From Alistipes sp. (GTDB lineage Bacteria > Bacteroidota > Bacteroidia > Bacteroidales > Rikenellaceae), in NCBI GenBank assembly GCA_017559615.1, contig JAFYRB010000053.1, positions 1 to 61,480 on the forward strand: 61,480 bases of DNA. The letters run 5' to 3'. Below the pieces are notes generated by a model, which was not told the DNA's origin, did no database searches, and saw only the letters and a program-made list of their open reading frames with translations. The number at the start of each line of letters is the position of its first letter. Positions within the stretch are counted from its first letter, which is position 1. This document shows positions 16,151 through 42,499 of this stretch, in pieces. Both the position numbers and the translations under genes were made by a program.

Positions 16151-16735
16151 ATGTATAAGCGTCTTGCTATTTTAATGTTGGCTCTCTTTTCGTTTGTGTC
16201 GGTGTCGGCACAAAATTGGGCCATTAAGACAAATCTCGTGGGTGATGCCACTGCATCTATAAACCTCGGTGCCGAGATTGGACTTGCCGAAAGGTGGACT
16301 CTCGACCTATCGGGTAGTTATAACCCATTTACCATCAACAAAGATACCAATATGAAGTGGAAGCACTGGTTTGCACAACCAGAGGCGCGCTACTGGTTTT
16401 GTCATAAATTCGGTGGCCACTTCCTCGCTATGCACATCTTTGGAGGTCAGTATAATGTTGGTAACATCGACTTTCTTCCCGATATGCTTGGCACAAAGTT
16501 CTCAACCCTTGCCGATTATCGCTATCAGGGCGACTTCGTAGGTGCGGGTATCGGTTATGGCTATGCGTTCCTTCTCGGCGAGCATTGGAACCTCGAGTTG
16601 CAGTTGGGCGTCGGTGGTGCATACACCTGGTTCGATAAGTACTACTGCGCCAAGTGTGGCTCGAAGATTACCTCTGACGACCACATCTATTGGGGTATTA
16701 CGAAGTTGGCTGTAAATATTGTCTATCTATTCTAA
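16151..16735 (+). CDS. DUF3575 outer-membrane barrel protein, pilus locus 1
   Basis: A 194-residue protein with a cleavable signal peptide (about residues 1-20, ends VSAQ), then alternating amphipathic beta strands typical of an 8-strand outer-membrane barrel, ending in Leu-Phe (IVYLF). It belongs to DUF3575, a family found at the head of type V pilus loci in Bacteroidales; its molecular role is not known to me. A late loop carries CAKCG, two Cys two apart, also present in the locus 2 paralog. It is the first gene of locus 1 and lies 12 bases before the DUF3868 gene. A platform or surface-presentation role is inferred from strict pairing with the next gene. The closest relative in the window is the 41918-42499 gene. 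Confidence 0.8.
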   Translation: MYKRLAILMLALFSFVSVSAQNWAIKTNLVGDATASINLGAEIGLAERWTLDLSGSYNPFTINKDTNMKWKHWFAQPEARYWFCHKFGGHFLAMHIFGGQYNVGNIDFLPDMLGTKFSTLADYRYQGDFVGAGIGYGYAFLLGEHWNLELQLGVGGAYTWFDKYYCAKCGSKITSDDHIYWGITKLAVNIVYLF

Positions 16736-16747
16736 AAACTCGGAGCG

Positions 16748-18208
16748 ATGAAACGATTTATACTTATATTATATATAGCAATCTTCTGTGCGGCATCAGT
16801 TTCGGCACAGCAACTATTCTACGCCGAGGATGGCGAGATTCGTAACCTTGAGGTTAGCCGCGATAATGGCGAGGTTAAGGTGGCGATGGATATCGACATC
16901 TCGGAGATATCGCTCGGTAGCGACGAGACTGTTATCCTTACACCAATCGTTACCGATGGCCAGAATAAGATTACTATGCCATCTATTGAGCTTATGGGCC
17001 GCCGTGCCTACTTCTACTATAAGCGTGACGGTGCAGTTCCCGAGACCGAGAATCCTTTCGCTGCGCAGCGCGTTGCTAAGCGTGCCGAGAAGAAGGAGGG
17101 CGTTAAGCAGATTGTAAACTACGAGGCAAGCTTTGCGTTTGCCGAGTGGATGCGTGGCTCTACGGTTGCTATCCGCGAGGGTTTGTGTGGCTGTGGTAAG
17201 CTTCGTGGCCAGCGCGATGTTCCTGTTGGTAATTTCGGCCATAACATCTACGTTCCAGAGTACGTGTGGTCGTTCATTCAGCCTGACCCAGAGCCTATTA
17301 AGGTGCGTAACGAGTCACATACGGCCTATATCAACTTCTGGGTAGACCGCTACGAAATCTTGGAGAATTACAAAAACAATGCCGTGGAGCTTGCGGGTAT
17401 CATCGAGTCTATCTCGAAGGTGGACGACGACGAGGACCTTACCATCACCTCTATCACCATCGAGGGTTGGGCATCTCCCGAGGCTACAGAGCAGCATAAC
17501 AAGGTGTTGTCGCAGAATCGTGCTAACTCGTTGGCAAACTACGTCTCAAGGAAGACAGGCGTAGAGCGTAAACTTATCGAGGCTATCGGCTGTGGTGAGG
17601 ATTGGGCAGGCTTGCGTGAGTTGGTTGATGCAACTCCAGGACTCCTCTATCGTGATAAGGTATACGAGATTATGGACTCTAATCTCACTCTCGACCAGAA
17701 GGATTGGAAACTTTCGCAGCTCAAGCCTTCGGATATCTACACCCGCTTGATGAACGAGATGTATCCAAAGTTGCGCCGCAACGACTACGTGATTATCTAC
17801 GAGATTCGTAACTTCGACCTTGAGGAGGCGCGCCGCCTTATCAACGAGCATCCTGCGAAACTCTCTGTGGATGAGATGTATAAGGTTGCTGGAAGCTACG
17901 AGCGTGGCTCGAGGGAGTATAACAACGTCTTGGAGACTGCCGTTCGCCTCTATCCAGAGGTTGTTGCTGCTGCTGTTAATGCTGCTGACCTTGCGCTCAA
18001 GGAGGGTGATGATGTCGACTATGCTCTTGAGATTTTGGAGCGCAGCAACCAGGCTGATGCACGTATTCAGGCTGCCGAGGGTTATATCTATATCCTCAAG
18101 GGTGACTACGATAAGGCTCTTGACCTTCTTCGCAAGGCCGCTAAGGAGGGTAATGAGGATGCACAACACAACCTCGCGGAGTTGGAGCGTTACCTCGCCT
18201 CTATCTAA
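16748..18208 (+). CDS. DUF3868 and OmpA-like pilus-associated protein, locus 1
   Basis: A 486-residue periplasmic protein with a signal peptide (cleavage after VSAQ). The first 150 residues form the DUF3868 domain (beta-rich, includes GRRAYFYYKRDG). A conserved GLCGCGK cysteine pair follows near residue 149. Residues about 195-330 look like an OmpA-type peptidoglycan-binding domain (ITIEGWASPEAT, SQNRANSL). The C-terminal 120 residues are tandem helices resembling TPR repeats, around KGDYDKALDLLRKAA. The domain set suggests a protein that binds peptidoglycan and contacts the barrel partner encoded just upstream, so I infer a cell-wall link for the pilus machinery. The paralog at 40442-41905 is nearly the same length and is closely similar over the OmpA domain. 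Confidence 0.8.
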   Translation: MKRFILILYIAIFCAASVSAQQLFYAEDGEIRNLEVSRDNGEVKVAMDIDISEISLGSDETVILTPIVTDGQNKITMPSIELMGRRAYFYYKRDGAVPETENPFAAQRVAKRAEKKEGVKQIVNYEASFAFAEWMRGSTVAIREGLCGCGKLRGQRDVPVGNFGHNIYVPEYVWSFIQPDPEPIKVRNESHTAYINFWVDRYEILENYKNNAVELAGIIESISKVDDDEDLTITSITIEGWASPEATEQHNKVLSQNRANSLANYVSRKTGVERKLIEAIGCGEDWAGLRELVDATPGLLYRDKVYEIMDSNLTLDQKDWKLSQLKPSDIYTRLMNEMYPKLRRNDYVIIYEIRNFDLEEARRLINEHPAKLSVDEMYKVAGSYERGSREYNNVLETAVRLYPEVVAAAVNAADLALKEGDDVDYALEILERSNQADARIQAAEGYIYILKGDYDKALDLLRKAAKEGNEDAQHNLAELERYLASI

Positions 18209-19609: not shown

Positions 19610-20590
19610 ATGAAAAGAATTAAAAAACATACCCTTCTTCTATGCTTGTCGCTCGCCTCGTTCGTTCTGCTTGCGGGCTGCATCAAGGAGAATCTCGACG
19701 GCTGTTTGCGTTGTATAAACTTCGAGTACTACGCTGACGGCAATACCGATGTCTTCCCAGATTACATCGAACGTGTAAGTCTATATGTCTTCGACAAAGA
19801 TGACAAGATGGTCTCTGCTTCCGACCTCGGAAGGAGCAACCCCATCATATTGGAGCAGAACGACTTAAAGGAGTATCAGGGTGTAAAGCTGATGATTACA
19901 GGAGGTACGTATCGCTTCGTGGCGCTCGGAAATCCTAATACGGAGCAGGCTACCGAGGTCTATAACGTGGAGTGTGGCAATATGGCCGACATCTTCTGTA
20001 GCCATCCTCATTGCACATCAACAGAGGTCGAGGGTAACGATCCGTTGTACCTCGGTTCAAAGGTGGTGGAGATTCCCGATGATACGAACTACGAAACAAC
20101 ACTCCGACTCTACTCTGCGCATCAGAAAGTGACCGTTACGGTTAAGGGTTATATCGGCGAGGAGGTTCAGGGTAAGAGTGCTATGGCAGCAACGGGCGAC
20201 CTTGTGTTACGCCTTGTGGACCTAAAGAGCAAGGTCGATTTCTACCACGATGAGGCTGGCGTTAAGGACCAGAACCTCGCATTGGGTGACCTTGTTGCCT
20301 ACAACCCAACAATCGCACTCGACAGAGAGACAGGCTGGTATGAGGCCAAGTTCAATATCTTGCGTCATACGGCCGACAGCACTATGGGCTTCGTGGTTAC
20401 GGAGCGTGCTACGGGTCGAGTTATAGCAACGGTATCTCTCGCAAAGTTCCTCGAGGCATTTTACGAGGTGGATATCACAAAACAGGAGGCTCTCATTCCG
20501 CTAATTCTGGAGATTACCGACGAAGTTGTGGTAACAATTCCAAGCTGGATGTTAGAGCATCGTAACCCAATCTATGATAAAAACTATTAA
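19610..20590 (+). CDS. FimB/Mfa2-family pilus anchor lipoprotein, locus 1
   Basis: A 326-residue lipoprotein (lipobox LLAGC) of the FimB/Mfa2 anchor family, which ties the pilus base to the outer membrane and limits length in Porphyromonas. It has the family's paired cysteines just after the lipid Cys (NLDGCLRCINFEY), the VERVSLYVFDKD region, and the C-terminal WMLEHRNPIYDKNY. Unlike the pilins of the locus, no Thr-Arg or Ser-Arg site follows in the first 40 residues after the lipid Cys, so it should stay lipidated. It follows the major pilin after a 153-base gap with a hairpin, and precedes the accessory pilin gene by 14 bases. Confidence 0.85.
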   Translation: MKRIKKHTLLLCLSLASFVLLAGCIKENLDGCLRCINFEYYADGNTDVFPDYIERVSLYVFDKDDKMVSASDLGRSNPIILEQNDLKEYQGVKLMITGGTYRFVALGNPNTEQATEVYNVECGNMADIFCSHPHCTSTEVEGNDPLYLGSKVVEIPDDTNYETTLRLYSAHQKVTVTVKGYIGEEVQGKSAMAATGDLVLRLVDLKSKVDFYHDEAGVKDQNLALGDLVAYNPTIALDRETGWYEAKFNILRHTADSTMGFVVTERATGRVIATVSLAKFLEAFYEVDITKQEALIPLILEITDEVVVTIPSWMLEHRNPIYDKNY

Positions 20591-22281: not shown

Positions 22282-24732
22282 ATGAGAAGGTATATACTAT
22301 ATATTGTTTGCGTAATTGCGGCGCTTGGTCTTGGCGGTTGCGTTGCTGCGGATGAAAACGATATTTTGTTTCGTGAGGGCGATGTAACGCTTACACTTTC
22401 GTTGGGCGACCTCACCCGCAACAATACGGCTGATAACGGCGTTGGCGAGGGTACTAACGACGATGACACTTCGGGTATTGTGCTTAATGAGAATAAGATA
22501 GCTTCGCTCGAGATATTCCTCTATGCTAATGGTGCAGAGGGCAAGGATGCTACCTATGCCACACGCATCGAGGGACTTGATGGCCGAGATAGAGTTGATA
22601 ACGTTAAGTTCTCGATTCCTGCCGATGCTATTACCACGCTCTTTGCCGGTGGTGCTACTACGTGTGGTATCTATGTCATTGCCAACTACGATACGGGTCG
22701 CACCATAGCCGTTAATGGCATCTATGAGAATACATCTATCGCGGAGCTTAAGGCTATTGAGGTTACCTCGTCGTTCGATGCCTTGCAGTCGCTAAACCTC
22801 GCAGCACTTGATGCAAGATATAGCGGCAGCGTGCAGAATATCAAGCCACAGGAGTACTTTGTTATGGATAGCGACCTTGCTACCGTAACCAAGAGTGGCA
22901 ATAACCTTTCGGGTACGGTCTATATCACCCGTGCGGCCTCGAAGATTACGTTCCGCGCAACTATTGCCCAGAGCCTTGAGATTGACGACAAAACGTGGGT
23001 TCCTATGCTTGAGAACCTCTCGTTCAGCTACAACAATATCGTAAATAAGGGCTATATTGATAATGGTAGCGACACAAATGCCAACTTTGCGATGCCTACG
23101 GGCGAGGGTGTCTATGCTACTGCCAAGGGTATCCAGATGGCGAACCTTGGTGGCAAGACTCCAAACTACGGTAGTGAGGTAGAGGGTGTGTCTGTCTGGA
23201 CAACTATCGACCACGTTATTCCTCTCTATACTTATAGCTCATATTGGAGCGATGGCGCTAATAATCAGGCATATATTATGCTTACTGTGCCTTGGAAGGT
23301 TGAGGACGAGGGTAACGAGGCTCTCACCTACTACAACTACTTCGTGCCGTTGAATATGAACGAGCTGAAGCTTGTTCGCAATAAGCACTATCGCATCAAC
23401 CTTCGTGTTGGTGTTCTTGGCGACCTTGAGGAGCTTACCGAGAGCGAGTATAGCTATGAGGTACTCGATTGGGTTGGCGAGGATATCAGCGTGGAGTTGA
23501 ACAAGCCTACCTACCTTGTTGTTGACCAGAACTACGTTGTAATGAAGAATATCGAGGAGTTCTCGGTGGGTTACCATAGCTCTGATGAGGTGGAGTGTGA
23601 GGTTTTGTCGACAACGATTAGCAACGAGGTAAGGTCAGGTGGAGTTATTGTGTCGTATTCTTCGTATCGGAAGTTTTACCTGAATGGAGTTGAAATGACC
23701 CCTGATAACTACGAGGACAAAACCATTTCGGCACCAGGTGGTGTGGTTACCTTCGAGCACGGCTTGGATAACACCCGCTCAGATAACGATACAGACTACG
23801 ACTTCTTGATTCAGACTACCGTTGTACGTGTCTATCACAAGAACAACCCCTCTATTTACGAGGATATCACCTTTGTGCAGTATCCAGCTATGTATGTAAC
23901 GGTTAATGCAGGAATTGAGGGTAAATGGAACTATATCAACGTAAATGGTAATGGTTGGGAGAATTGGACTACTAGCAGCGGTGCAGGTACAGGCTGTCCA
24001 ACTGTTAAAGTTGGTAGAGATAATGTGAAGGTCTACTGGGTAGGTATTGGAGGTAAGTCGCAGGCTAGTACAATCCACAATATGTATCAGATTACCGTAA
24101 CGGCATTCGATGAGACCACTGCAAATTATATCGTAGCAGACCCACGAGCAGAGGCAACTGATATTACAATATTCCCTGGTTATAATCACGGCTCAAGCAG
24201 CCAGGCTCCCGACTATCCTGTTCAGCCTGACCAGTTGGGTGTAACAACAATCAAGGGATATCGTGGTACTCTTGTGGAGAATTCCGATAATCTTGTGGCT
24301 CCGGAGTTTATTGTAGCCTCACACTGCTCAACGTGTACTAATGCAGATCAATACTTCTACTCTGAAGATAGCGGTTATAATCGTTGCGCAGGATATCAGG
24401 AGGCAGGCTACCCAGCGGGCCGTTGGCGTCTCCCAACAACTGCTGAGTTGGAGGTAGTAGGTAAGTTGTGCGCACAAGATAAGTTGCCACAGATTTTTGT
24501 GGATGGTGTCGCATATGTAAGTGCTTCGGGTACTTTCTTGAATAGTGGTGGTAGCTTCTCGCCATCAACAACAAATCAAGCACAGTCCGTACGTTGCGTT
24601 TACGACACTTGGTATTGGAAGGATAAGTGTAACGATACTTCTATGCAAAAGTTGCTTTGGGCTGCCGATGGTAATGTGGCGGATATGAAGGCGAATGGTA
24701 AGTATGACACCTACCTACAGAGAGTTAAATAG
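22282..24732 (+). CDS. Accessory/tip fimbrial subunit with C-terminal lectin-like module, locus 1
   Basis: An 816-residue lipoprotein precursor (Cys20 in LGLGGC; DLTR gives Arg46). The N-terminal half resembles FimA-type pilins (SLEIFLYANG, CGIYVIANYD). The C-terminal about 140 residues hold RWRLPTTAELEV, then a final SVRCVYD with several Cys, the pattern of FISUMP/C-type-lectin-like domains, so glycan or protein binding is plausible at the pilus tip. From about 23.6 kb on, codon use changes: GAA, CAA, AGT/TCA become common where the first half uses GAG, CAG and TCG. This suggests that the C-terminal module was swapped in. Position and the same module in the 33087-36038 gene of locus 2 support a shared role. 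Confidence 0.65.
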   Translation: MRRYILYIVCVIAALGLGGCVAADENDILFREGDVTLTLSLGDLTRNNTADNGVGEGTNDDDTSGIVLNENKIASLEIFLYANGAEGKDATYATRIEGLDGRDRVDNVKFSIPADAITTLFAGGATTCGIYVIANYDTGRTIAVNGIYENTSIAELKAIEVTSSFDALQSLNLAALDARYSGSVQNIKPQEYFVMDSDLATVTKSGNNLSGTVYITRAASKITFRATIAQSLEIDDKTWVPMLENLSFSYNNIVNKGYIDNGSDTNANFAMPTGEGVYATAKGIQMANLGGKTPNYGSEVEGVSVWTTIDHVIPLYTYSSYWSDGANNQAYIMLTVPWKVEDEGNEALTYYNYFVPLNMNELKLVRNKHYRINLRVGVLGDLEELTESEYSYEVLDWVGEDISVELNKPTYLVVDQNYVVMKNIEEFSVGYHSSDEVECEVLSTTISNEVRSGGVIVSYSSYRKFYLNGVEMTPDNYEDKTISAPGGVVTFEHGLDNTRSDNDTDYDFLIQTTVVRVYHKNNPSIYEDITFVQYPAMYVTVNAGIEGKWNYINVNGNGWENWTTSSGAGTGCPTVKVGRDNVKVYWVGIGGKSQASTIHNMYQITVTAFDETTANYIVADPRAEATDITIFPGYNHGSSSQAPDYPVQPDQLGVTTIKGYRGTLVENSDNLVAPEFIVASHCSTCTNADQYFYSEDSGYNRCAGYQEAGYPAGRWRLPTTAELEVVGKLCAQDKLPQIFVDGVAYVSASGTFLNSGGSFSPSTTNQAQSVRCVYDTWYWKDKCNDTSMQKLLWAADGNVADMKANGKYDTYLQRVK

Positions 24733-26647: not shown

Positions 26648-26657
26648 TAATTTAAAG

Positions 26658-29555: not shown

Positions 29556-32500
29556 CTACTGTCCCTCAACGTATGTAAGTGTAATCTGCCTATTTGAAGA
29601 GTTGTAGAGCGTCTTCAAATCAGGAAGTATTGTCGAGTAGTACTTGCCATCAATCGAACACATAACTTCGATAGGATCATTTGTCCAGTTGAACTCATAC
29701 TCGGCACGCATTCGCAACTCATAGTAGATTTCAGACATAGGGTTATTCTCGTCCTCGGCCTTAACGGTCAACGAACCGATTCTACTACCGTCGTGCAGAC
29801 GTGTGAACGATACGAACTGTCCTGCTGGCACGCTCTGTGGCGTTGAGGTCGAGGTGCCATTGCTCTGCTGTGGAACGTAGAGAATCTCACCCTTGATAGG
29901 GGTATTGGATACCTCGAAGCTCTTCGAGTGGTATGTCACCTGGTCAGGGTTTGCACTTATGGTGATTGTGCCACCGCTAACGATAGAGTTCTTCTTGAAG
30001 TATATCGTCTTGCGCTCGCCGTATGGGTCGATAGTCTGGTCGATAATCAGAGGGAGCGATGTAATGCTACTCCAATTAGTCCAGTGGTCTGCCTCGGCGG
30101 AGTTCAAAGCATCGACGCGATATACAAACCTGCCATTTCCCAAATCCTCGAGCTTTGGCTTGTGATAGTAGTAGCCATTGCCATTGCTATCCTTGTCGAA
30201 CATCTCTACCGAGATATCCTCGAAGTTAGCACCCGAAATACTCCTATTCATACCCTTGTGTAGCGAGAGCATTGGAGCATCGATAAATATCTCAAATGCG
30301 TGGCCAAATGGGTTGATAGAGAGCATATCGCTGCCGCTACCCGCGCTATATGACGTTACGTCGAACGACACCGCGATAGTCTCATCTGGGAGGTACTCAA
30401 ACTCGATGTTGTCGACCACCTCGCTTGCGGTTATGGCATCCGCTGCCAAGCCCTCATCGCTACGATAGCTACCCTTGCCATTTACCTGTGCCGCAAAGCG
30501 GAAAGGACGATAGTTGATAACCTCGAATGTCACCGAGCGGAATGTCTCACCATTATATAGCTGCGAAGGGTCCTTCACCTGTATGGAGTTCTGCTGGTTT
30601 GATGCTATACGTACCACCTCCGCACTATTAGGTTTGTTGGTCTCCATATGGATTTGGAAGTTGTTCTCCGCATCCCATATATCGCTTTTTTCACGAGGAT
30701 AGAAACCAAAGATACGTCCTCCCGTAGACCAGATATCCTTGTTATATGGCTTAAAGTAGCAGTCGAAATCACCCTTCGTAAAGCTATAGGAGTAGTTCGC
30801 AGAACTCTCGGGAACACGGATGTCGTTATCGGCATAGTGGTCCAAGTTCGAAGAGTAGAGCAGGAACTCCTCATCGGTAAGCTCTCGGTAGTGTTCGCCA
30901 TTGGCCATAAGGCTTACGTCAAATACCACTGGCACAAAACGCTTTTGTGGCACGAGGATATACTTTACAACCTCCTGATCGGTGATCGTTGCATCGGCAT
31001 TGACCGAGTAGTACGATAGGTTAGGAAGCACAATCTCGTTGTGGTGGTCGACGAAGGTCACCATCTTTGTCACATAGTCGAAGTACTCTGCTTCGAGTGT
31101 TACATACTCAACCTCCTCGTTCTTCATATCCATAACATTCTTGAAATAGATATGGTGCTGGCCTGGCTCGTTGACGGTAAACTTATACTTATATCCGATG
31201 TCGGTGATTCTCTCGCCGTTGAACTCAAAATCAAAGTAGTTGCCATAGCCATCCTCGCCATCACGAACAATAGGCAATATCTGGCCCGTAGCTGCGCGAC
31301 CATCAAGACCATTTGTTGTGACAAGAACATCCATTGGGAATAGCTCCTCGGGGCAGGTGTTAGGGATGGTGAATACTACAGTGACGTTCGAACTCGACTC
31401 GCTGTTATCCGTTACACCGCCATATACCTCGGCACTCACCCACGTAGGTATAAACTCCTTGGTGCGCATCAAGATAATACGAATCTTACGCTGCAAGTGG
31501 CCATACTTTACCACTATCGATGCTCGCTCATACTCTGTGCCGCTCTTAAGAGTATTCATATCCAGCGATATCTCACCCTTGCCTGTTGTGGCGTTGAACT
31601 CCACTCTGTTGCCAATTGTAAGGTTAGGGTTAAAGGTGCTGGATACCTTCTGGTCATCCTCAATCCACGATACCTTCAACTTATCGAGGTTGATGGCTGT
31701 GCCATCCAATTGCTGAATACTAAAACCAAGTTTTAGCACGTCGGTTTTAGGCTCGCCGCTCGTTGCATTGGCCTCCACTACTGCTGTGGCATTATCCACC
31801 GAGAGGATAAAGTTGTTGTTGCGAACCGAGGTTACCTCGTCCGAGATAGAGAGCCAGATGTTGTTTGTTGGAGGTGCTGTAATAGCCTCGTTGAAGCTCT
31901 GGCAGCCGTTTGTTAGGTTGCCTGCGATGTGAATCTCATAGTGGTGGTTACGCAATATCTCAACGAACTCACTCTCGAGGTCGAGGATGTTCACACGATA
32001 GTAGTATCGCTCCTCCTGCTTTACGCCATTAACGATGTTGCAACCACGAAGGATAAGGTCAACAGGGTTGGTACTCAAGTTGCGACTCTCGAATACGAAT
32101 AGCTCGCGCTGTGTGGTAACATCAACGATATCCGATACCATATCTCTGCGCTCGGGCAGCGTTACGTTCTTCTCCGTTAGCCAGTTATGCTTAGAGTGAG
32201 CAGTCGAGGTATCCATCACGCCGAACTCTGGCTCGTATGTTGTGCAGGCATAGGTTGGGAAGCCATACTCGGTGTGATATGGTGCTACGGTACCAAATGC
32301 CAAGGTGTTGCAGATAGCAAATCCTGTAACCTCAAAAGAGTCTCCCTTCCACTCGTCGTTAGCATCTTCGCCCTCGCCATCCGATACTACTGTAAACTTC
32401 GCCTGATTGCGGAGTAGGATGATAGGGTTTCCCTTGCCACTTACGCCACGATGCGACTCCGACGTAGGGATAGTCTCGATTGTCAACCAATCGACAAATG

Positions 32501-33053
32501 CCTCGGCATTAGTGCGGCTGTTGATATCTCGGCCATTGTCCATCTGCACATCACGATAGAGGCTCAGAAGCTCCTTTGGAGCCTCGATACGCGCCCAATA
32601 GATAAGCATTCCCGCGCTACCCACCAACGCCGAGAGTACCTCATCCTCGCTCTTGTAGAGATAGTCGGATTTGTTGAATGCCGACATATTCTGGTTTGCA
32701 AGTAGATGAAGTATACGTGTAGTCTTGGGTACAGTAGCGCTGAAGCTGCCGCTCAACCTATCTTGGCTGCTGCTTACAATCTGTGCTGGTGAGGTCGTAA
32801 GAAATAGTCCATTCTCATCGAAGCAGAAGAGTGTCAACGTCTGCAACGTCATACCATCGGGGTCCACAGCGCGTGTGTCGACCGTAAACGGATTAGGAGC
32901 CTTGACATTGAGATGCAATCTCATCTCATCGCCAAACACACCGACCTCGGTATTAGGTTGCTGTGGCACATTTGGGATATCCTCATAGTTGCGACACGCC
33001 GCCGCCATCACCACCAGCGCCAACACTGCAAATATGCTGTATATGTGTTTCAT
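29556..33053 (-). CDS. Very large tip-like fimbrial lipoprotein, locus 2
   Basis: A 1165-residue lipoprotein precursor (Cys20 in VVMAAAC, then RNYED, an acidic run). DTR gives Arg61, 41 residues after the lipid Cys. The N-terminal third is homologous in pattern to the 24752 protein; the C-terminal part is a row of Ig-like beta domains (for instance NPFGHAFEIFIDAPML and GKSFEVSNTPIKGEILY) that lengthens the protein. No catalytic motif. It is the last gene of locus 2 and is separated from the peptidases by a bidirectional terminator. The length fits an extended stalk or adhesin. It is the longest protein in the window. Confidence 0.6.
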   Translation of the reverse strand: MKHIYSIFAVLALVVMAAACRNYEDIPNVPQQPNTEVGVFGDEMRLHLNVKAPNPFTVDTRAVDPDGMTLQTLTLFCFDENGLFLTTSPAQIVSSSQDRLSGSFSATVPKTTRILHLLANQNMSAFNKSDYLYKSEDEVLSALVGSAGMLIYWARIEAPKELLSLYRDVQMDNGRDINSRTNAEAFVDWLTIETIPTSESHRGVSGKGNPIILLRNQAKFTVVSDGEGEDANDEWKGDSFEVTGFAICNTLAFGTVAPYHTEYGFPTYACTTYEPEFGVMDTSTAHSKHNWLTEKNVTLPERRDMVSDIVDVTTQRELFVFESRNLSTNPVDLILRGCNIVNGVKQEERYYYRVNILDLESEFVEILRNHHYEIHIAGNLTNGCQSFNEAITAPPTNNIWLSISDEVTSVRNNNFILSVDNATAVVEANATSGEPKTDVLKLGFSIQQLDGTAINLDKLKVSWIEDDQKVSSTFNPNLTIGNRVEFNATTGKGEISLDMNTLKSGTEYERASIVVKYGHLQRKIRIILMRTKEFIPTWVSAEVYGGVTDNSESSSNVTVVFTIPNTCPEELFPMDVLVTTNGLDGRAATGQILPIVRDGEDGYGNYFDFEFNGERITDIGYKYKFTVNEPGQHHIYFKNVMDMKNEEVEYVTLEAEYFDYVTKMVTFVDHHNEIVLPNLSYYSVNADATITDQEVVKYILVPQKRFVPVVFDVSLMANGEHYRELTDEEFLLYSSNLDHYADNDIRVPESSANYSYSFTKGDFDCYFKPYNKDIWSTGGRIFGFYPREKSDIWDAENNFQIHMETNKPNSAEVVRIASNQQNSIQVKDPSQLYNGETFRSVTFEVINYRPFRFAAQVNGKGSYRSDEGLAADAITASEVVDNIEFEYLPDETIAVSFDVTSYSAGSGSDMLSINPFGHAFEIFIDAPMLSLHKGMNRSISGANFEDISVEMFDKDSNGNGYYYHKPKLEDLGNGRFVYRVDALNSAEADHWTNWSSITSLPLIIDQTIDPYGERKTIYFKKNSIVSGGTITISANPDQVTYHSKSFEVSNTPIKGEILYVPQQSNGTSTSTPQSVPAGQFVSFTRLHDGSRIGSLTVKAEDENNPMSEIYYELRMRAEYEFNWTNDPIEVMCSIDGKYYSTILPDLKTLYNSSNRQITLTYVEGQ

Positions 33054-33086: not shown

Positions 33087-36038
33087 CTATTTCTTACGAT
33101 TTACATCGCGCACGCAACGGATGTAGTAGCCTGTTTTATTTGAGTCATAATTAGGCACCTCGTTCGACACCCAATTATCCTTATCGTTGATGTCGGCATC
33201 GTCGCCATTACCCGTAATACAGAAGTAGTATTGGCCTACCAGCAATCGGTCCATAGCGCGTGACGACTGCTGAAGTTCAATCATCTGGTCAATCTCTGCC
33301 TTTGTAGGCAAGCGCCAATCATCGTAGTGGATAACGACCTCAGGATGGCCGTTTACATTCTCATCCCACACATTATTCTCGTTCTCATCAATAAACGTTG
33401 TCTCGACATACTCTCGACAATGCTCCTTGGCAAACTCATAGAAACCACCAACAACAGGGATAGGGTAAGGTGTTGAAAGACTTGCTGCATTTGCAAGAAT
33501 GGATTGATAATGAGTCTCGCCAAGCTGCGACGCAACCTGTAGGTTTGGAGATATCATAACCGAATTATCGTGCGCGTTCTCCAGTGTGCCATCACTATTG
33601 AGCGATGGATAACCAATTATATAGTTATTCTTGGTCGTAGTAGTACGTATGTTGTACATTCTGTGGTTGCTATACCTCTGTTTGCCCCACGCGCCCCAAC
33701 CAGTTCCAGGGTCATCTTTATAGGTTGTTGTAGCGTGAGTCATCGAGTAGATATCAGCCTGACCCTTAACTTTGTCTGCCTCATTCTCCTGATATACCTT
33801 TCCGACGAACTGATTATAGAATACAACCTGGATGTTCCACACATAGTGTTTTCTATACCATCGAGTTTCGGTTACACCATCAACTGTAACCTCCTTCGTG
33901 TAAAGACCGCCAATGGATAGACCTTGTGAGTCATTGTTCGATGCACCTATACCATTGTACCTCCAACGGTAGAAATAATCTGTAGGGAATGTTGATGGAC
34001 GATAAATACCACCATATACTTTCTCCTGTAGTACACCTTTGGAGTTGTGCCAAGTAACAGGATTACCAATGTTTCCGTAGTGAACATTCTCAACACCCGC
34101 AGCTTTGTGATTTGCAGGACAAGTTTGAGGCACTACCCACGAGTAGTCTCTCTCGTTTCTATTCTCTGCCCACCACTCATCGGTCATCTCAAACTCCTTC
34201 GACCATTCGTGTTCGTGGTAGAAGTACAATCCAGTGAGGTGAAGGCTCTTATATCCCATATAGTTGTGATAGTGGGAAGCCTCCTCCTGGTCATCTGTTA
34301 GCTTCTGGTCCGAGCGATATGAGAAATAACCCTCTTCGTTAGAGATAATGATGTGAGGTATCTGCTCCACGCGGAAGGTGGCGATAAGGCCCTGCTCGTT
34401 CATAACCTCAAACTCCAAATAGCGAATAGTATTGAAGTGCGAGTTCCAGTCTAAATCCTCGTCGCCAGCAACAGCATTGATAGGCGAGTAGATGTGGATG
34501 TTGCCATTGAGCTTGCGCTCGTCGCCAGGTGCTACAACAGCTCTAATATGTTGAATATCAGCTCCCTCCTTCTTGTAAAGGTTTAGCTCGCGCTGCAAGA
34601 CCTCTTCCTTTGTAAGTTCGGGATACTCCGTAATCTTGATATCGAAACCAGGGTCGGTGCCGAGCTGAATCTTCTGGCCAAACTTGTCGATATAGTAGGC
34701 GTAGACACCATCGCCCTCCTCATATACGGGTGCGGTAATGCCATCCGACTCCTGGGTAATATCCACCGACTGGAAGCTATCCAAGCGAGCGTTGTGGCTA
34801 TATACATCCTTAAGCGTGATGCTCTTGATAGGCGATGATGAGGTAAAGGTGAGCTGGTCGAGATCGAGGTTGGTGTTGTAAATCTTCACAACCTCCATAT
34901 TCAGCGTTAGATACTTCGCCTCGTTCTGGCCGATGCCAACATCCACCTTCTGCCAATCCAGCGTAACATACTCGGCATTGTTAATCTCGATAGGAGTGTT
35001 CTTCTCCTGTGCGCCTATGGCGTTGATATTCACGTTGATAATATAGCACTTATTGCGCTCAAAACGATTCTCTTTGCTAATCGGAATCTTATACCAATTC
35101 ACAGGACTTGCGCTCTCCTTGCTGCCATCCTTGCTGCCATCCTTATTCCACATCATAGGGATGTTGAGAAGGAGCGCACTCTCGTTAGCGGTCTGCTTCG
35201 ACCAATCGTTGGCATAGGCATAGCCGATAAGTGTTAGTGAGGTGCTACCATTGCCGCTATTCCACTCGAAGGTGTTGGCATTAAGTCCCATCTCCTCGGT
35301 AGTCTGCTTCTGGCAGCTATACTTAACACCCTCCTCGGGTCGTACAACAAGGGTGCTGATAGGGAGCTGATAGAAGGAGTAGAGAGGCACACTGCCATCC
35401 ATCTCCTGACTAAACTCCACGCTTGAGCCTTGTGTGAGTGTCACAACAATCTTTGCAGCTGCGCGATATAGCGTTCCTGCAAGGTATATATCCTTATTCT
35501 TCTGGCCATCGTTGATAACATAGGCTGTCATAGCCTCGGGAGCAGTCTCGTTGCCACTCTCCGAGAGATAGGCGAAGCCATCCATAAGGAAGTAGTCGGG
35601 ATTTTGCTCACCCTCAATACCAGAGAGGTGGATATTCTCGTCGGACTGTGTCATCTCGCATAGCTCCTCCCACGTTGTTGCGGTGCTGAGCGGCGATGTA
35701 GAGTTGGCAATCATATACACGAAATACTTCTCGCCTACGGTAAACTCATCACGATTCTTGCGAAGTGTGAACTCGCCGCCACCAACCACAGGCGATGCTG
35801 ACTTATCTATACGTTCGCTATATACGACGTTATAGGCCTCGTCCATAACATAGACATCCACCAATGCAAGCGATGACTCGATGTCGGTATCCTCCGAACG
35901 TGTGGTTATGCCGAGCGACTTTGCCGAGATGATAATCTTGTCGCTTCCCGCAGGACGCTGCTCAATCTCAACATCGCTATTGGTACACGATACGAGCATT
36001 AGAAGTGACGCAAATATGATAGAAATATAGTTTCTCAT
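33087..36038 (-). CDS. Accessory/tip fimbrial subunit with C-terminal lectin-like module, locus 2
   Basis: A 983-residue lipoprotein precursor (Cys18 in LMLVSC; TTR gives Arg47). The N-terminal half is FimA-like (ALVDVYVMDEAYN, FVYMIANSTS). The C-terminal part contains DDWRLPTKAEIDQM and ends YYIRCVRDVNRK, the same FISUMP/C-type-lectin-like signature as the 22282 protein of locus 1. Codon use drifts over the C-terminal third (AGA, GAA, TTA-like codons appear near 33.5-34.2 kb), again suggesting an exchanged module. It lies 33 bases before the 1165-residue gene. Tip adhesin is the likely role. Confidence 0.65.
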   Translation of the reverse strand: MRNYISIIFASLLMLVSCTNSDVEIEQRPAGSDKIIISAKSLGITTRSEDTDIESSLALVDVYVMDEAYNVVYSERIDKSASPVVGGGEFTLRKNRDEFTVGEKYFVYMIANSTSPLSTATTWEELCEMTQSDENIHLSGIEGEQNPDYFLMDGFAYLSESGNETAPEAMTAYVINDGQKNKDIYLAGTLYRAAAKIVVTLTQGSSVEFSQEMDGSVPLYSFYQLPISTLVVRPEEGVKYSCQKQTTEEMGLNANTFEWNSGNGSTSLTLIGYAYANDWSKQTANESALLLNIPMMWNKDGSKDGSKESASPVNWYKIPISKENRFERNKCYIINVNINAIGAQEKNTPIEINNAEYVTLDWQKVDVGIGQNEAKYLTLNMEVVKIYNTNLDLDQLTFTSSSPIKSITLKDVYSHNARLDSFQSVDITQESDGITAPVYEEGDGVYAYYIDKFGQKIQLGTDPGFDIKITEYPELTKEEVLQRELNLYKKEGADIQHIRAVVAPGDERKLNGNIHIYSPINAVAGDEDLDWNSHFNTIRYLEFEVMNEQGLIATFRVEQIPHIIISNEEGYFSYRSDQKLTDDQEEASHYHNYMGYKSLHLTGLYFYHEHEWSKEFEMTDEWWAENRNERDYSWVVPQTCPANHKAAGVENVHYGNIGNPVTWHNSKGVLQEKVYGGIYRPSTFPTDYFYRWRYNGIGASNNDSQGLSIGGLYTKEVTVDGVTETRWYRKHYVWNIQVVFYNQFVGKVYQENEADKVKGQADIYSMTHATTTYKDDPGTGWGAWGKQRYSNHRMYNIRTTTTKNNYIIGYPSLNSDGTLENAHDNSVMISPNLQVASQLGETHYQSILANAASLSTPYPIPVVGGFYEFAKEHCREYVETTFIDENENNVWDENVNGHPEVVIHYDDWRLPTKAEIDQMIELQQSSRAMDRLLVGQYYFCITGNGDDADINDKDNWVSNEVPNYDSNKTGYYIRCVRDVNRKK

Positions 36039-36070: not shown

Positions 36071-37684
36071 TTACTCCTGACGAATTGATATCCAATGGAT
36101 ATCTGGTTCGTCGTTAGCATTCGTACCATCCCAAGGGTAATACAAACCATTGTTATTGCCTTTGTTGATGATTAGCAATGGGTTAGCCTCGGCATTCCAA
36201 TCTACGGTGTATGTCAAACCGAGCTTTATGACGTTGCCAATGTTATTAGGGTTCTTCGCCACCACAACAATCTTATAGAAGTTGTTTGCCTCGGCCTCGA
36301 TAGCAGCATCAGTAACCAAAACATTGTATTCCGCGTCGGTGCCGTTGGTTGTGTAGATGCGAACTTCGTAGTCGGCGCTGCTTGCGTTGATAAGCGTAGG
36401 ACGCCACGTAGCACCCTCTGGCGACTCCATCATAAAGTAACCCACAAAGGCACCTGCTTCACCCGAAGCGTCGCTATTGTCGTAGCGAACCGTAGGCACG
36501 TCAACAGGAGCCGCAGCACTCTTGTCGGGCGCGGTCATAAGGTTGGTGTGGATAGGTACCGAGAGGTCGAGATTCCATACGGGCTCATCCTCCCACTCTG
36601 CAACAACGAGGTTCATCTTTAGACCGATGTTGACAGCCGTGATGGTGTAGTCGTAGAAGTGGTTACGTACGATATCGTAGTTTTCTCCCGAGGGCTGGCC
36701 ATTATCGTAGTTGCAGAAGCGGATGCCCTTCTCGTATGGGAACTCTACACTCTCGACGATAGTGCCATTCTCCACTCTGTTAAGCTCTACGGCAAGAGCT
36801 AAATCGGTAGTGATTGACTCGTTGTAGTTTAGGCTATTATTCTTAGTCTCAGGGATATAGATGTTATATGAGCCAGAGTTGAGTCCCATTGTCGTAGCGC
36901 TAATGTTGGTCATCAGCGATGCGTCGGTATTAGGGCGGAATACATCGCTACGCACCATACTCTCGGTGTGGTCGGCAGTGTTCCACTCGGCAGGTAGACA
37001 GTAGCCATTTGCATTTGCGTAGTTGAGTTTCAAGCCGCTAATCTTCCAACCCTCGGCCTTCACCTCGTCAGAGAGTTTTACGCCCACCTTCGCAGTAGCA
37101 CGAAGCACGCTAATCATACCCATCTCTATTCGGCGGTTGTCGGGCATATTGGTTGGGAACTCGAAACTCTTTACGCCCCACATCGGAATTGATGCAGCGA
37201 GTGGGGTAGCATAGACCAACTTCTCAAGAGAGGGAGTGTTGTTGTTATAGCTGATGCCATAGCTGCGGTTTGTGCAGTTTGCTATGACCATAACGCGATA
37301 CGATTCTCCCAAAACATACCTAAATGTGGCAGGAAAGGCGCATACGAATGTCGCCCTACCATCAATCTCCTCGCTCTGAAGGATTGGTAGTTCATCGAGG
37401 AATCCACCATCCGCACCATAGACGAAAACCTTGAGCGTAGCGATATCGACTCTATTCTCGAAGTCGCTACCCTCGATGCTCGAGTAGTCGCCACCCCAAG
37501 TCTTGTCATCGGCACGTGTGCCGAGCTGTGCGGTAGCATCCATCGAGAATGTTGCGACCATAGGCTCATCTCCCACAACTTCGTACTTTACATCCTCTAC
37601 ACGCGAACAGGAACTGCATAGAAGAGTGAAAAGTAGCGTTAGGAGAGATATATGTGTTATGCCAAATTTCATATTCCAAAGCAT
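36071..37684 (-). CDS. Accessory fimbrial subunit, pilus locus 2
   Basis: A 537-residue lipoprotein precursor (Cys26 in LLCSSC; GTR gives Arg57, 31 residues after it). The first ATG at 37684 overlaps the anchor stop in TAATG, a one-base overlap that suggests coupled translation; a later ATG four codons on (MKFGITH) is a possible alternative. The N-terminal domain is FimA-like (ATLKVFVYGADG, YRVMVIANCTNRS) and the C-terminal 170 residues form a second domain. It has the same slot as the 20605 gene of locus 1, so the two probably serve the same role. Confidence 0.7.
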   Translation of the reverse strand: MLWNMKFGITHISLLTLLFTLLCSSCSRVEDVKYEVVGDEPMVATFSMDATAQLGTRADDKTWGGDYSSIEGSDFENRVDIATLKVFVYGADGGFLDELPILQSEEIDGRATFVCAFPATFRYVLGESYRVMVIANCTNRSYGISYNNNTPSLEKLVYATPLAASIPMWGVKSFEFPTNMPDNRRIEMGMISVLRATAKVGVKLSDEVKAEGWKISGLKLNYANANGYCLPAEWNTADHTESMVRSDVFRPNTDASLMTNISATTMGLNSGSYNIYIPETKNNSLNYNESITTDLALAVELNRVENGTIVESVEFPYEKGIRFCNYDNGQPSGENYDIVRNHFYDYTITAVNIGLKMNLVVAEWEDEPVWNLDLSVPIHTNLMTAPDKSAAAPVDVPTVRYDNSDASGEAGAFVGYFMMESPEGATWRPTLINASSADYEVRIYTTNGTDAEYNVLVTDAAIEAEANNFYKIVVVAKNPNNIGNVIKLGLTYTVDWNAEANPLLIINKGNNNGLYYPWDGTNANDEPDIHWISIRQE

Positions 37685-38715
37685 TATAGGTCGGTATCGT
37701 TAATGACTACGCTCCAAGAGTTGATGATAACCACGCCAGCAGCCCAATTACCAAACTCATCAAGGAAGAACGTGAGGTTGTACTCATCCTGACGATCCAA
37801 GTACTCCTGATTGCTCATATTACGGTTGTAGTAACCCTTAACAAGCAGTGCATAATCCTTCAATGGAATAGAGAGTACGAGCTTATCGTTTGTAGTGTTG
37901 TATACCGAAAGGATAGGGTTGTTGTCAACCAACAGACGGTTAACTGTAAACTCGGCAAGAGCCACGCTAACGGATGTCTGCGTACGTGTAGCATCGTATA
38001 TATCGCCCTCGCCAACGCCTGCCGAACCAGAGGTTACGCTCCAAGGATAGTAGGTAATAACCTCCTCCGAGAGAAGTGAGTTGTCATACTTGAGAGCGCC
38101 GTTTTTATCGGTAATCTCGAAGCGGAATAGATCCTTATCTACGTCGATACCCGAGAGATGCTGCAAAATTACGCGTACGACGTTAGTGTCCTTCGTAAGA
38201 GAGATGGTCTCCTTACGCACGCCATACTTACCCTCGATTGTGATACGCTTCATACCGTGGAATAGCTGACCTACATCCTCCTTTACGGTGTTGTTCTCCT
38301 CGCGGGCCATAGTACAGTTAAGCTCCGTGATATGCGAGATGTTGGCAGTTGGCTGTGGCACCATAAAGTTGTTATTCATAAGACCGTCGCCACACCACGC
38401 AACAAGGTCATAGGTGCCTGCTGTGAGGTTGTCGAGGGTCATAACATAATCCTCCTGTGCCAGTGCCTCGCCGCTATCGACCATTCTTGTTACGAGCTTA
38501 CCTGTCTCGGCATCGTAGACGCATAGTGTCACGTAGTCTACCGAGTTTGCAAACGCATCGGCAAACTTCATATTCATATCGTACTTAAACTTAATGTTGC
38601 ACACCAAAGTACAATTTGAATTATCCTCCGTGATAGTGCCGCACGACACCATCAATGCCGCAATTGCCAACGAAGGAAGAATTGCCAATCTCTGAAGTAG
38701 GTTTCTAACTCTCAT
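37684..38715 (-). CDS. FimB/Mfa2-family pilus anchor lipoprotein, locus 2
   Basis: A 343-residue lipoprotein (lipobox ALMVSC, Cys25) with the anchor family's Cys pair (NCTLVCNIKFKYD) and a VTLCVYDAETG segment matching SLYVFDKDDK of the locus 1 anchor. No Thr-Arg or Ser-Arg site in the first 40 residues after the lipid Cys, in contrast to the pilins. Its role is to tether the pilus to the outer membrane (family knowledge). It follows the major pilin after a hairpin-containing gap of 103 bases and overlaps the next gene by one base. Confidence 0.85.
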   Translation of the reverse strand: MRVRNLLQRLAILPSLAIAALMVSCGTITEDNSNCTLVCNIKFKYDMNMKFADAFANSVDYVTLCVYDAETGKLVTRMVDSGEALAQEDYVMTLDNLTAGTYDLVAWCGDGLMNNNFMVPQPTANISHITELNCTMAREENNTVKEDVGQLFHGMKRITIEGKYGVRKETISLTKDTNVVRVILQHLSGIDVDKDLFRFEITDKNGALKYDNSLLSEEVITYYPWSVTSGSAGVGEGDIYDATRTQTSVSVALAEFTVNRLLVDNNPILSVYNTTNDKLVLSIPLKDYALLVKGYYNRNMSNQEYLDRQDEYNLTFFLDEFGNWAAGVVIINSWSVVINDTDL

Positions 38716-40441: not shown

Positions 40442-41905
40442 TTAGTTGAGGCTCTTTTCCAACTCCTTGAGGTTGTGCATTGCCTCCGCAGAGCCTTGTG
40501 CTGCGGCCTTCTGCCAAGCCTCACGTGCCTTGTCGTTGTTGCCACATACGGCATAGGCGTAGCCCATAGTTAGCTGAACGTTAGCATCCTCCTGGTCGGT
40601 GAGCTTTAGGATTGCAACAGCGCCCTCGCAGTCGCCATTGTTGAGCTTCATTACTGCTGCGTTTACTGCTGCTGCCACCTCGTGTGGGTAGGTCTCTGCT
40701 GCTACGGCCATAACGTGCTGATACTCCTTCGAACCACGCTCGTAGCTGCCTGCAACCTGATACATCTCGTCGATAGAGAGTTTGTATGGGTTCTGGTCGA
40801 TAAGTGCGCGAGCCTCCTCGAGGTTAAAGTTACGAACGCTATAGATAATGCGATAGTCGTTGCGGCGCAACTTTGGATACATTTCGTTCATAAGTCGCTG
40901 ATAGATGGTTGGAGGCATAAGCTGCGAGAGTCGGTAGTCCTTCTCGTCGAGTGTCAAAGCTGGATCATCAATCAAGGCGTATACCTTATCGCGGTAGAGG
41001 AGTCCTGGTGTCGCATCAACCAACTTACGCAAGCCTACCCAATCCTCGCCACAGCCGATAGCCTCGATACGCTCACGCTCGATGCCTGTCTTCATCGATA
41101 CGTAGTCGGCAAGTGAGTTAGCACGATTCTGCGAAAGTGTCTGGTTGTGAGCCTGTGTAGCCTCTGGAGATGCCCAACCCTCGATGGTGATAGATGTGAT
41201 TGTGAGGTCCTCATCCTGGTGTACGCGGTCAATAGAGTTCAGGATTGATGCAAGCTCCACCTTGTTGTTGCGGTAGTTCTCCAGGATTACATATCGGTCT
41301 ACCCAGAAGTTGATGTATGCCGTATGCGACTCCTCACGAACCTTGATAGGCTCGGGATTAGGCTCTACGAATGCCAACAAGTAGTGTGGCTCATACTTAT
41401 CGTGAAGCACCTGCTTGAGTGGAGTACTGCCCAATGCTACGAGAGCCAACGAGCAGCCGCAGCTACCCTCGTTGATAGAGATTATAGCATCCTTCATCCA
41501 AGGCTCATAGGCAACCTCGGCGCTGTATGCTACCAACTGCTTCTTGCCCTCCTTGCGCTCTGTGCGTGTTGCCTCGCGCTCTGCGTATAGTGGCGACTTG
41601 GTAACTGTCTGCTCGCCATTACGCATCCAATAGAGCCACGCGCGGCGGCCCATAACCTCGATTGAAGGGAGTTCTACGGACTTATCCTCTCGCTTCATTA
41701 CGGGCGTAAGCACCATCGTCTCATCGCCACCTACCTCAAGTTGGCTGATGTCGATATTCATAGCAATATGCACACGGTCATTGCTATTTGTAACACTCAA
41801 ATCCTTCACCTCCACCTGATTCTCGGCAACCTTTTGCGCCGAAGCAGTGAAGCTAACCATTGCCAATGCAACAACACTCAATGTGTATAGAATAGTCTTT
41901 TTCAT
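40442..41905 (-). CDS. DUF3868 and OmpA-like pilus-associated protein, locus 2
   Basis: A 487-residue periplasmic protein with a signal peptide (ends ASAQ), DUF3868 domain (GRRAWLYWMRNG), GSCGCS Cys pair near residue 147, and the OmpA-type domain with ITIEGWASPEAT and SQNRANSL. TPR-like helices at the C-terminus (CGNNDKAREAWQKAA) close the protein. Long stretches match the locus 1 paralog word for word, such as ESHTAYINFWVDRY and IEAIGCGEDW, so the two are recent relatives compared with the pilins. Thirteen bases separate it from the DUF3575 gene. Confidence 0.8.
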   Translation of the reverse strand: MKKTILYTLSVVALAMVSFTASAQKVAENQVEVKDLSVTNSNDRVHIAMNIDISQLEVGGDETMVLTPVMKREDKSVELPSIEVMGRRAWLYWMRNGEQTVTKSPLYAEREATRTERKEGKKQLVAYSAEVAYEPWMKDAIISINEGSCGCSLALVALGSTPLKQVLHDKYEPHYLLAFVEPNPEPIKVREESHTAYINFWVDRYVILENYRNNKVELASILNSIDRVHQDEDLTITSITIEGWASPEATQAHNQTLSQNRANSLADYVSMKTGIERERIEAIGCGEDWVGLRKLVDATPGLLYRDKVYALIDDPALTLDEKDYRLSQLMPPTIYQRLMNEMYPKLRRNDYRIIYSVRNFNLEEARALIDQNPYKLSIDEMYQVAGSYERGSKEYQHVMAVAAETYPHEVAAAVNAAVMKLNNGDCEGAVAILKLTDQEDANVQLTMGYAYAVCGNNDKAREAWQKAAAQGSAEAMHNLKELEKSLN

Positions 41906-41917
41906 ACTGCGTCAGAT

Positions 41918-42499
41918 TTAGAAGAGGTAAACAAAATTGATTGCGAGCTTTGTAGGGCCGTAGTAGACGTGCTTTCCTGAGCCTATCTGCTCGCCACATT
42001 TCGGACACTCGTACTTATTGTACATAGTATATGCTACACCGAAGCAGGCCTCTACTTCGAAGTTCCAATGCTTGTTAAGCATCCACGCATAGCCGTAGCC
42101 TACGCCAGCACCCACGAGCAAGCCCTCGAAACGATAGTCGCGGAGCTGTGAGAATGGTGTGCCGAGGAAGTCGGTTGCAAAATCTATGTTACCAGCGTTG
42201 TACTGCATACCCAGAAGGTGGGCTGCAAAAAAATGACCGCCGAATTTACGACAGGTCCAATAACGGATTTCTGGTTGTATCAACCAGTGTTTCCACTTCT
42301 TGTTGTCTGCGAATTGGAATGGGTTGTAGTTTGCCGACAAATCGAAGGTAAACTTCTCGCCCAGTCCAGCCTCAATGCCAAGATTAATTGTAGCAGTAGC
42401 ATCATAGAGTAGATTGCTCTTGATGGCGAACTTTTGAGCTGATGACTCTTGGATAGTGATTAACATCACTAATCCAAAAAACAGTAAAAATTTCCTCAT
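41918..42499 (-). CDS. DUF3575 outer-membrane barrel protein, pilus locus 2
   Basis: A 193-residue outer-membrane barrel protein with a signal peptide (ends SSAQ), the same pattern as the locus 1 paralog (AIKSNLLYDATATINLG against AIKTNLVGDATASINLG). It ends in FVYLF. The late loop has CPKCG. The start is set at the ATG at 42499, since 36 further upstream in-frame codons do not look like a signal peptide. It is the first gene of locus 2; a promoter lies at 42640-42672. Confidence 0.8.
   Translation of the reverse strand: MRKFLLFFGLVMLITIQESSAQKFAIKSNLLYDATATINLGIEAGLGEKFTFDLSANYNPFQFADNKKWKHWLIQPEIRYWTCRKFGGHFFAAHLLGMQYNAGNIDFATDFLGTPFSQLRDYRFEGLLVGAGVGYGYAWMLNKHWNFEVEACFGVAYTMYNKYECPKCGEQIGSGKHVYYGPTKLAINFVYLF

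What the first reader, a model, noticed from the sequence alone, without database searches (positions are those of the whole stretch)
16151..42499. Twin type V pilus loci converge on a tandem pair of clostripain-like peptidases, proposed pilin maturases
Seen: two seven-gene loci with the same gene order run towards each other and flank two tandem C11 lipoproteins that have their own promoter and terminators on both sides. Known: type V prepilins are lipoproteins that need Arg-specific cleavage to polymerise; Porphyromonas uses gingipains, which are clan CD like clostripain. Inferred: in this organism the linked C11 enzymes are the dedicated maturases for both pili, a self-contained pilus-plus-protease system. 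I know of no description of this arrangement.
Basis: partly seen in the sequence, partly recalled or inferred. Interest (0 to 1): 0.82.

Follow-up and report, generated by a model that had tools for sequence, protein, structure and literature searches.

The report
Twin pilus operons around peptidase pair
Two gene clusters for surface hairs (pili) in a gut bacterium face each other around two protease genes; the pair is probably not what matures these hairs, but some related bacteria carry a different protease beside a pilus operon together with a changed cutting site in the hair proteins.

Summary
The anatomy is real: two seven-gene type V pilus operons of different types converge on a separately transcribed tandem pair of C11 lipoproteins (58% identical), and all eight non-anchor subunits carry a Thr/Ser-Arg site. 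That this pair is the dedicated maturase is not supported. Its subfamily is strong in 18 of 180 genus genomes, and in none within 20 kb of a pilus gene on the same contig (contigs often short). 79 of 92 genomes with a strong Mfa2 lack it. It has lost the S1 aspartate behind Arg/Lys preference (3 of 90 keep Asp). A core C11 beside ffh keeps it (17 of 17 fetched). A 2025 review already says type V pilins are cut by 'the surface clostripain'. Elsewhere the idea fares better: another C11 clade, with Glu at S1, follows type V pilus genes in eight Bacteroidales loci. There most subunits have Tyr where others have Arg (8 of 8 loci with Tyr-only subunits, against 2 of 57 without such a C11). This suggests a linked maturase whose specificity changed with its substrate; all eight belong to one C11 clade, so it may be one event.

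The parts
16151..16735 (+). left operon: DUF3575 outer-membrane protein
   Evidence: PF12099 233 bits
16748..18208 (+). left operon: DUF3868/OmpA protein
   Evidence: PF12984 40 bits, PF00691 28 bits
18272..19456 (+). left operon: putative stalk prepilin, site SR|A at mature residue 28
   Evidence: lipobox and site; no family above cut-off; orthologue in G006
19610..20590 (+). left operon: Mfa2 anchor, no TR/SR site
   Evidence: PF08842 96.5 bits
20605..22269 (+). left operon: accessory pilin, site LTR|AGT at mature residue 20
   Evidence: read by eye (script printed no lipobox call for it)
22282..24732 (+). left operon: large tip-like subunit, site LTR|NNT
   Evidence: PF06321 23.9 bits
24752..26647 (+). 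left operon: terminal accessory subunit, site ETR|SFA
   Evidence: 199 homologues at E <= 0.001
26653..26685 (+). terminator-like hairpin after the left operon
26687..26694 (+). candidate Bacteroidetes -7 box TAACTTTG (motif recalled)
   Evidence: sequence
26726..28090 (+). C11a lipoprotein peptidase, window-type
   Evidence: PF03415 58 bits; His/Cys present, S1 Asp position holds Ile
28121..29482 (+). C11b lipoprotein peptidase, window-type; His153, Cys203, Arg167
   Evidence: PF03415 64 bits; S1 Asp position holds Met
29501..29541 (-). hairpin between the convergent units (terminator-like on the - strand)
29556..33053 (-). right operon: terminal accessory subunit, site DTR|AVD
33087..36038 (-). 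right operon: FimD-type tip adhesin, site TTR|SED
   Evidence: NF052322 335 bits, cut-off 170
36071..37684 (-). right operon: accessory pilin, site GTR|ADD at mature residue 32
   Evidence: read by eye (script printed no lipobox call for it)
37684..38715 (-). right operon: Mfa2 anchor
   Evidence: PF08842 214 bits
38819..40381 (-). right operon: Mfa1-family stalk prepilin, site LTR|AGV
   Evidence: NF038041 148 bits, cut-off 130
40442..41905 (-). right operon: DUF3868/OmpA protein
   Evidence: PF12984 40 bits, PF00691 32 bits
41918..42499 (-). right operon: DUF3575 protein (ATG start at 42499)
   Evidence: PF12099 240 bits for the longer GTG frame

Best explanation
The window holds two complete type V pilus operons of different types that converge on an independent transcription unit of two lineage-specific C11 surface lipoproteins. 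The prepilins reach the surface as lipoproteins and are cut after a conserved Thr/Ser-Arg, which frees the groove for strand exchange. In this lineage the Arg cut is most likely made in trans by the core C11 encoded beside ffh, which keeps the S1 Asp. The tandem pair is an accessory expansion: probably active His/Cys enzymes whose S1 Asp has become Ile or Met, surface peptidases with a different or relaxed P1 preference that process other surface proteins or outside peptides, and which lie between the pili by lineage-specific rearrangement. Shown: anatomy, sites, distribution, residue changes. Inferred: who cuts the pilins and what the pair cuts.
For: Strong window-type C11 (E <= 1e-110) in 18 of 180 genus genomes (9 further matches at 1e-35 to 1e-56 are cousins); 0 of 18 within 20 kb of a DUF3575 or Mfa2 gene on the same contig. 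79 of 92 genomes with a strong Mfa2 (E < 1e-20) lack it. Arg-site pilus loci in G115 and G117 without it. The residue two before the catalytic Cys is Asp in 3 of 90 (88 of the 95 proteins that are at least 390 aa, plus C11a and C11b), against Asp in 18 of 18 other C11s from these genomes (pattern without Asp). PMC4850288 and PMC11296011 name this Asp the P1 determinant (passages). Core C11 with this Asp lies beside ffh in 17 of 17 genomes fetched for it. Some C11 in 90 of 92 strong-Mfa2 genomes against 78 of 88 others (Fisher p 0.016, kinship not corrected). Two convergent pilus operons with no C11 between them in G079 (L146). Purifying selection on the type (L001/L002 dN 0.04, dS 0.134).
Against: Arg167 is invariant (90 of 90) at the place of the PmC11 autocleavage Lys147, so Arg may still be accepted. 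Glu234, invariant in the 25-row alignment, lies near the place of PmC11 Asp207 and could supply an acidic S1. Strong Mfa2 is somewhat commoner with the window type: 13 of 18 against 79 of 162 (p 0.08). The window's own genome is not held, so its core C11 was not seen. Relatives are mostly fragmented MAGs: of the 11 Alistipes loci only L001, L002 and L004 have 10 kb on both sides, so absence of a pilus is open for several. Linkage of pair and left operon recurs on at least one other contig: P0003 (C11b, 95%) and P0096 (last left-operon gene, 99%) both give contig length 63041.
Confidence: 0.6

Rival explanations
1. One reading: C11a and C11b are the dedicated Arg-specific maturases of both flanking pili, one perhaps for each pilus.
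For: Adjacency; surface lipoproteins; catalytic dyad intact; Arg sites in 8 of 8 non-anchor subunits; invariant Arg167 at the autocleavage place; C25 peptidases in only 9 of 180 genomes; C11-pilus linkage exists in other loci; weak co-occurrence with Mfa2 (p 0.08).
Against: Own transcription unit; none of 18 strong relatives near a pilus gene on the same contig; same Arg sites in relatives without the type; S1 Asp lost; not in the Glu-type pilus-linked C11 clade.
Confidence: 0.15
2. The pair has a different pilus-related job: trimming, shedding or turnover of assembled pili or tips, or a second cut.
For: Position between two pilus operons; both copies kept, dN/dS about 0.2 between them with dS near saturation; C11-pilus proximity is seen with more than one C11 clade (window pair; Glu-type clade; Asp-type L203).
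Against: No sign of association outside this species; one adjacency among the window and 18 strong matches is not far from chance.
Confidence: 0.2
3. The adjacency is pure coincidence in a variable surface-gene region near tRNA-Ser (this overlaps the best explanation, which adds what the enzymes do; the odds are not exclusive).
For: No pilus-C11 block upstream of PGK in 20 fetched relatives, several cut short by contig ends; in G001 a DUF3575 gene lies on the other side of M13.
Against: The tandem pair looks older than the species: proteins of lower identity share contig lengths in pairs (P0016/P0041 23064; P0017/P0042 10063; P0025/P0033 4040), so it seems kept as a unit.
Confidence: 0.3

Closest known systems
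Porphyromonas Mfa1/FimA type V pili matured by Arg-gingipains (PMC5954841, passages read)
   Same: lipoprotein prepilins, Mfa2 anchor, FimD-type tip, cut after Arg before strand exchange
   Different: gingipains are family C25 (name recalled, and in PMC4850288); here C25 is in 9 of 180 genus genomes and C11 in 168 of 180
Fragipain and other surface clostripains of Bacteroidales (PMC8406203, PMC12632263, passages read)
   Same: C11 surface enzymes; Fpn cuts Arg-Ala; the review says type V pilins are cleaved by the surface clostripain
   Different: solved C11 chains aligned (6n9j, 9cip, 6mzo, 3uws, 4yec, 6nag) show Asp at S1; fragipain's own residue was not looked at; the window pair lacks Asp and is a tandem between pilus operons
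PmC11 and clostripain (PMC4850288, PMC11296011, passages)
   Same: His/Cys dyad; basic residue at the autocleavage place (Arg167 against Lys147/Arg190)
   Different: Asp177/Asp229 replaced by Ile (C11a) or Met (C11b)
Pilus-linked Glu-S1 C11 clade found here (L150-L152, L157, L188, L190-L192)
   Same: C11 lipoprotein next to type V pilus genes
   Different: same strand after the pilus genes, Glu at S1, Tyr instead of Arg at most pilin sites; the window pair has its own unit and Arg-site pilins

Membership tests
Type V pilus locus | Mfa2 anchor plus stalk/tip prepilins as lipoproteins | tested here: met
   PF08842 96.5 and 214 bits; NF038041, NF052322 for the right operon; lipoboxes. The left stalk is called by position and site only
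Type V pilus locus | maturation site near the N terminus of non-anchor subunits, lacking in the anchor | tested here: met
   8 of 8 with T/S-R; anchors without one at that place
Peptidase family C11 (Pfam PF03415) | profile match above cut-off and His/Cys dyad | tested here: met
   58 and 64 bits, cut-off 25.8; His and Cys in 90 of 90
Clostripain-type Arg/Lys-specific C11 | S1 Asp two residues before the catalytic Cys | tested here: not met
   Ile and Met in the window; Asp in 3 of 90
Clostripain-type Arg/Lys-specific C11 | basic residue at the autocleavage place | tested here: met
   Arg167 in 90 of 90; meaning unclear without the Asp
Clostripain-type Arg/Lys-specific C11 | Arg/Lys cleavage activity | not testable with these tools
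   needs purified enzyme
Dedicated pilin maturase linked to pili | gene linkage conserved in relatives | tested here: not met
   0 of 18 strong matches within 20 kb of a pilus gene on the same contig; contigs often short
Pilus-linked Glu-S1 C11 clade | Glu at S1, same strand as the pilus genes, Tyr pilin sites | tested here: not met
   window: Ile/Met, own unit, Arg sites; separate clade

The most novel reading that the evidence does not exclude
Type V pili and C11 peptidases co-evolve. The default is a trans-acting core C11 with Asp at S1 that cuts Thr-Arg sites. Some pilus loci have captured their own C11 with Glu at S1 and changed their pilin sites to Thr-Tyr, a self-contained maturase-substrate pair that keeps one pilus separate from others in the same cell. 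The window's pair, with a hydrophobic residue at S1, would be a third, lineage-specific state beside pili that still use Arg.
Probability: 0.45. Interest if true: 0.85.

Novelty: new variant of a known kind. Interest (0 to 1): 0.6.

Why it matters
Which enzyme matures type V pili outside Porphyromonas is stated in a review passage, but I saw no direct test of it. The comparison gives testable predictions: Asp-S1 C11 cuts Thr-Arg pilins, Glu-S1 C11 from pilus loci cuts Thr-Tyr pilins, and the window pair cuts neither well. If true, Bacteroidales keep several pili separate by matched protease-substrate codes, a new principle for donor-strand pili and a source of site-specific proteases with changed P1 choice.

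Tried and rejected
Island at tRNA-Ser: only a 13-nt repeat of the tRNA end 213 bp away and no copy elsewhere in the window; not pursued. Synteny through PGK/M13: 20 regions fetched, several cut short by contig ends; no pilus-C11 block upstream of PGK. The first locus scan searched 14 C11 loci with window proteins only and would miss diverged fimbrillins; whole-genome DUF3575 and Mfa2 coordinates were used instead. The canonical set was picked with a pattern that demands Asp, so its 22 rows are not evidence; the unbiased count is 18 of 18. Contig-length fingerprints show linkage only positively, since they list a few contigs per cluster. C11-to-Mfa2 distances in the genus were read by eye from truncated lists and (27 genomes), so further linked cases may exist. 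Core C11: 17 genomes were fetched of the 23 with any match; G003 showed no such C11, and G033, G076, G094, G118, G130 were not looked at. Of the 40 order loci, 8 were left out of the S1 alignment and tree (L210, L212, L221-L226). The Tyr/Arg count left out L246, L247, L267 (no core gene found) and L155, and was not given L103, L112, L113, L115, L116, L143, L148, L156 (partial, orphan or duplicate), nor L193, L203, L215; its motif patterns are mine. The linked loci share one C11 clade, so the Fisher value treats kin as independent. Paper searches for a linked C11-pilus system; I saw listings, and passages of PMC12632263, PMC5954841, PMC8406203, PMC11296011, PMC4850288, PMC12502800 and PMC13271334; nothing on such linkage beyond the review sentence; most subscription papers are not held.

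Full report
OBSERVATION. The window carries a left operon on + (16151-26647) and a right operon on - (42499-29556) with one gene order: DUF3575, DUF3868-OmpA, stalk, Mfa2 anchor, accessory, tip-like, accessory. Between them, both on +, are C11a (26726-28090) and C11b (28121-29482), 58% identical. A hairpin with a T run follows the left operon (26653-26685), a TAACTTTG box follows it at 26687-26694 (Bacteroidetes -7 motif, recalled), and a strong hairpin separates C11b from the right operon (29501-29541). The pair is thus probably its own transcription unit. The operons are not copies of each other: DUF3575 58% and DUF3868 57% identical, the other subunits barely alike.

SITES. All eight non-anchor subunits have a T/S-R site 20 to 42 residues after the lipid Cys (six, two read by eye); the two anchors have none at that place. 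Homologues in relatives mostly have the same, with V-R in several terminal accessories. In P. gingivalis this cut is made by Arg-gingipains and is needed for the wild-type Mfa1 polymerization pattern (PMC5954841, passages). C25 peptidases occur in 9 of 180 genus genomes. [quoted passage not shown]

DISTRIBUTION OF THE PAIR'S SUBFAMILY. A profile of 25 relatives gives 27 matches in 23 of 180 genus genomes: 18 strong (E <= 1e-110, one in each of 18 genomes) and 9 weaker cousins. All 23 genomes have DUF3575 genes (11 of 11 and 12 of 12) and 20 of 23 have Mfa2, but none of the 27 C11 genes lies within 20 kb of one on the same contig; only in G001 do both lie on one contig, about 84 kb apart. Many contigs are short: of the 11 Alistipes loci only L001, L002 and L004 hold 10 kb on both sides. 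In 20 fetched pilus regions the only nearby C11 is the core one of G009. Of 180 genomes 92 have a strong Mfa2 (E < 1e-20) and 79 of these lack the strong window type; strong Mfa2 occurs in 13 of 18 genomes with it and 79 of 162 without (p 0.08). Some C11 is present in 90 of the 92. G079 has two left-type operons facing each other with only a 142-aa ORF between them. Left-type operons in G005 and G101 (last gene 70-71% identical) have no C11 next to them (G005 holds about 3.7 kb beyond the last gene).

ACTIVE SITE. His and Cys are invariant (90 of 90). The residue two before Cys, Asp177 in PmC11 and Asp229 in clostripain, called the primary S1 residue (PMC4850288, PMC11296011, passages), is V 35, M 34, I 12, G 3, and L, H, A once each; Asp in 3. 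In 18 other C11s from the same genomes it is Asp in all 18; cousins of the window type such as L060 and L061 also keep Asp. Against a simple loss of Arg specificity: Arg167 is invariant and aligned with the autocleavage residue, and Glu234 may replace Asp207.

CORE C11. In 17 of 17 genomes fetched for it a C11 of about 500 aa with S1 Asp lies beside ffh (SRP54 domains, and a BACON domain in the one C11 tested, L021). It is present in G115 and G117, which have Arg-site pili but no strong window-type C11. It is the better candidate for the Arg maturase; the window's own copy, if any, was not seen.

A PILUS-LINKED C11 CLADE ELSEWHERE. Comparing C11 and Mfa2 coordinates showed four genus genomes (G020, G022, G024, G027) with a C11 downstream of a type V operon on the same strand; in G024 it starts 2 nt after the stop of the preceding gene. 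G024 is probably Alistipes provencensis (its contig length equals that of P0218). A search of 393 order genomes with this C11 hit 66 at E <= 1e-15. Of 40 loci fetched, four of the five closest have type V genes upstream on the same strand (L188, L190, L191, L192); the fifth (L189) is cut by the contig end. L193 of the same clade is not linked; L194 is cut by the contig end. The link is not always direct: a thioredoxin-like gene lies between in L188, a reverse transcriptase in L190, an unnamed ORF in L191 and about 1.3 kb in L192. All 11 members of this clade have Glu at the S1 position; 25 other order C11s, 5 core and 5 other C11s have Asp. In a quick tree (SH-aLRT only) the 11 rows group at 95% and the 9 'pil' rows are on one side of a 99% branch against the other named groups; the window type is separate (96-100%). 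One Asp-type C11 (L203) also follows fimbrillin genes and a reverse transcriptase, with Lys at its sites (ATKG, LTKG), and L215 lies beside a DUF3575 gene.

SITE SWITCH. In the eight loci with a linked Glu-type C11 most prepilins read ETYAVE, KTYADD or alike where others read T-R-A: 19 subunits Tyr only, 3 Arg only, 1 both, 5 neither (the last group includes non-pilin lipoproteins). In 57 loci without one: 2 Tyr only, 197 Arg only, 3 both, 11 neither; all 57 have at least one Arg-only subunit. By locus 8 of 8 against 2 of 57 (Fisher p 9e-9, kinship not corrected; all eight share one C11 clade). Against a clean rule: the last accessory of L150-L152 keeps T-R-A; the L157 stalk has a Q-R-A a few residues before its T-Y-A; L190 has P-Y-A and T-K-A; and the L188 anchor, which should not be cut, reads K-S-Y-A. 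I infer that these C11s are dedicated maturases with a changed P1 choice; cleavage after Tyr is not shown.

CONCLUSION. For this pair the maturase reading is weak, but the general idea led to a stronger case in other loci.

Noticed in passing
window 1-8000: Phage-like genes at the left end: Clp-type protease (PF00574, 4362-5258) and a portal match just under its cut-off (PF04860, 6318-7541); perhaps part of a prophage.
   Followed up: no
L190:10587-11795, L203:10738-11892: A reverse transcriptase gene (PF00078), perhaps of a diversity-generating retroelement, lies between pilus/fimbrillin genes and a C11 gene.
   Followed up: partly
L021-L031, L117-L128: A C11 gene sits next to ffh in 17 of 17 genomes fetched for it, a conserved neighbourhood I did not expect.
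   Followed up: partly
L146 (G079:C23): Two left-type pilus operons converge tail to tail with only a 142-aa ORF between them.
   Followed up: partly
window 43560 and 43773: 13-nt direct repeat of the tRNA-Ser end, 213 bp apart, possibly an old attachment remnant.
   Followed up: no
L229, L238: Stalk prepilins with T-K-A instead of T-R-A at the site.
   Followed up: no
L006-L010, L056, L057, L059: Several window-type C11 genes begin within 1 kb of a contig end, as if assembly often breaks beside them.
   Followed up: no
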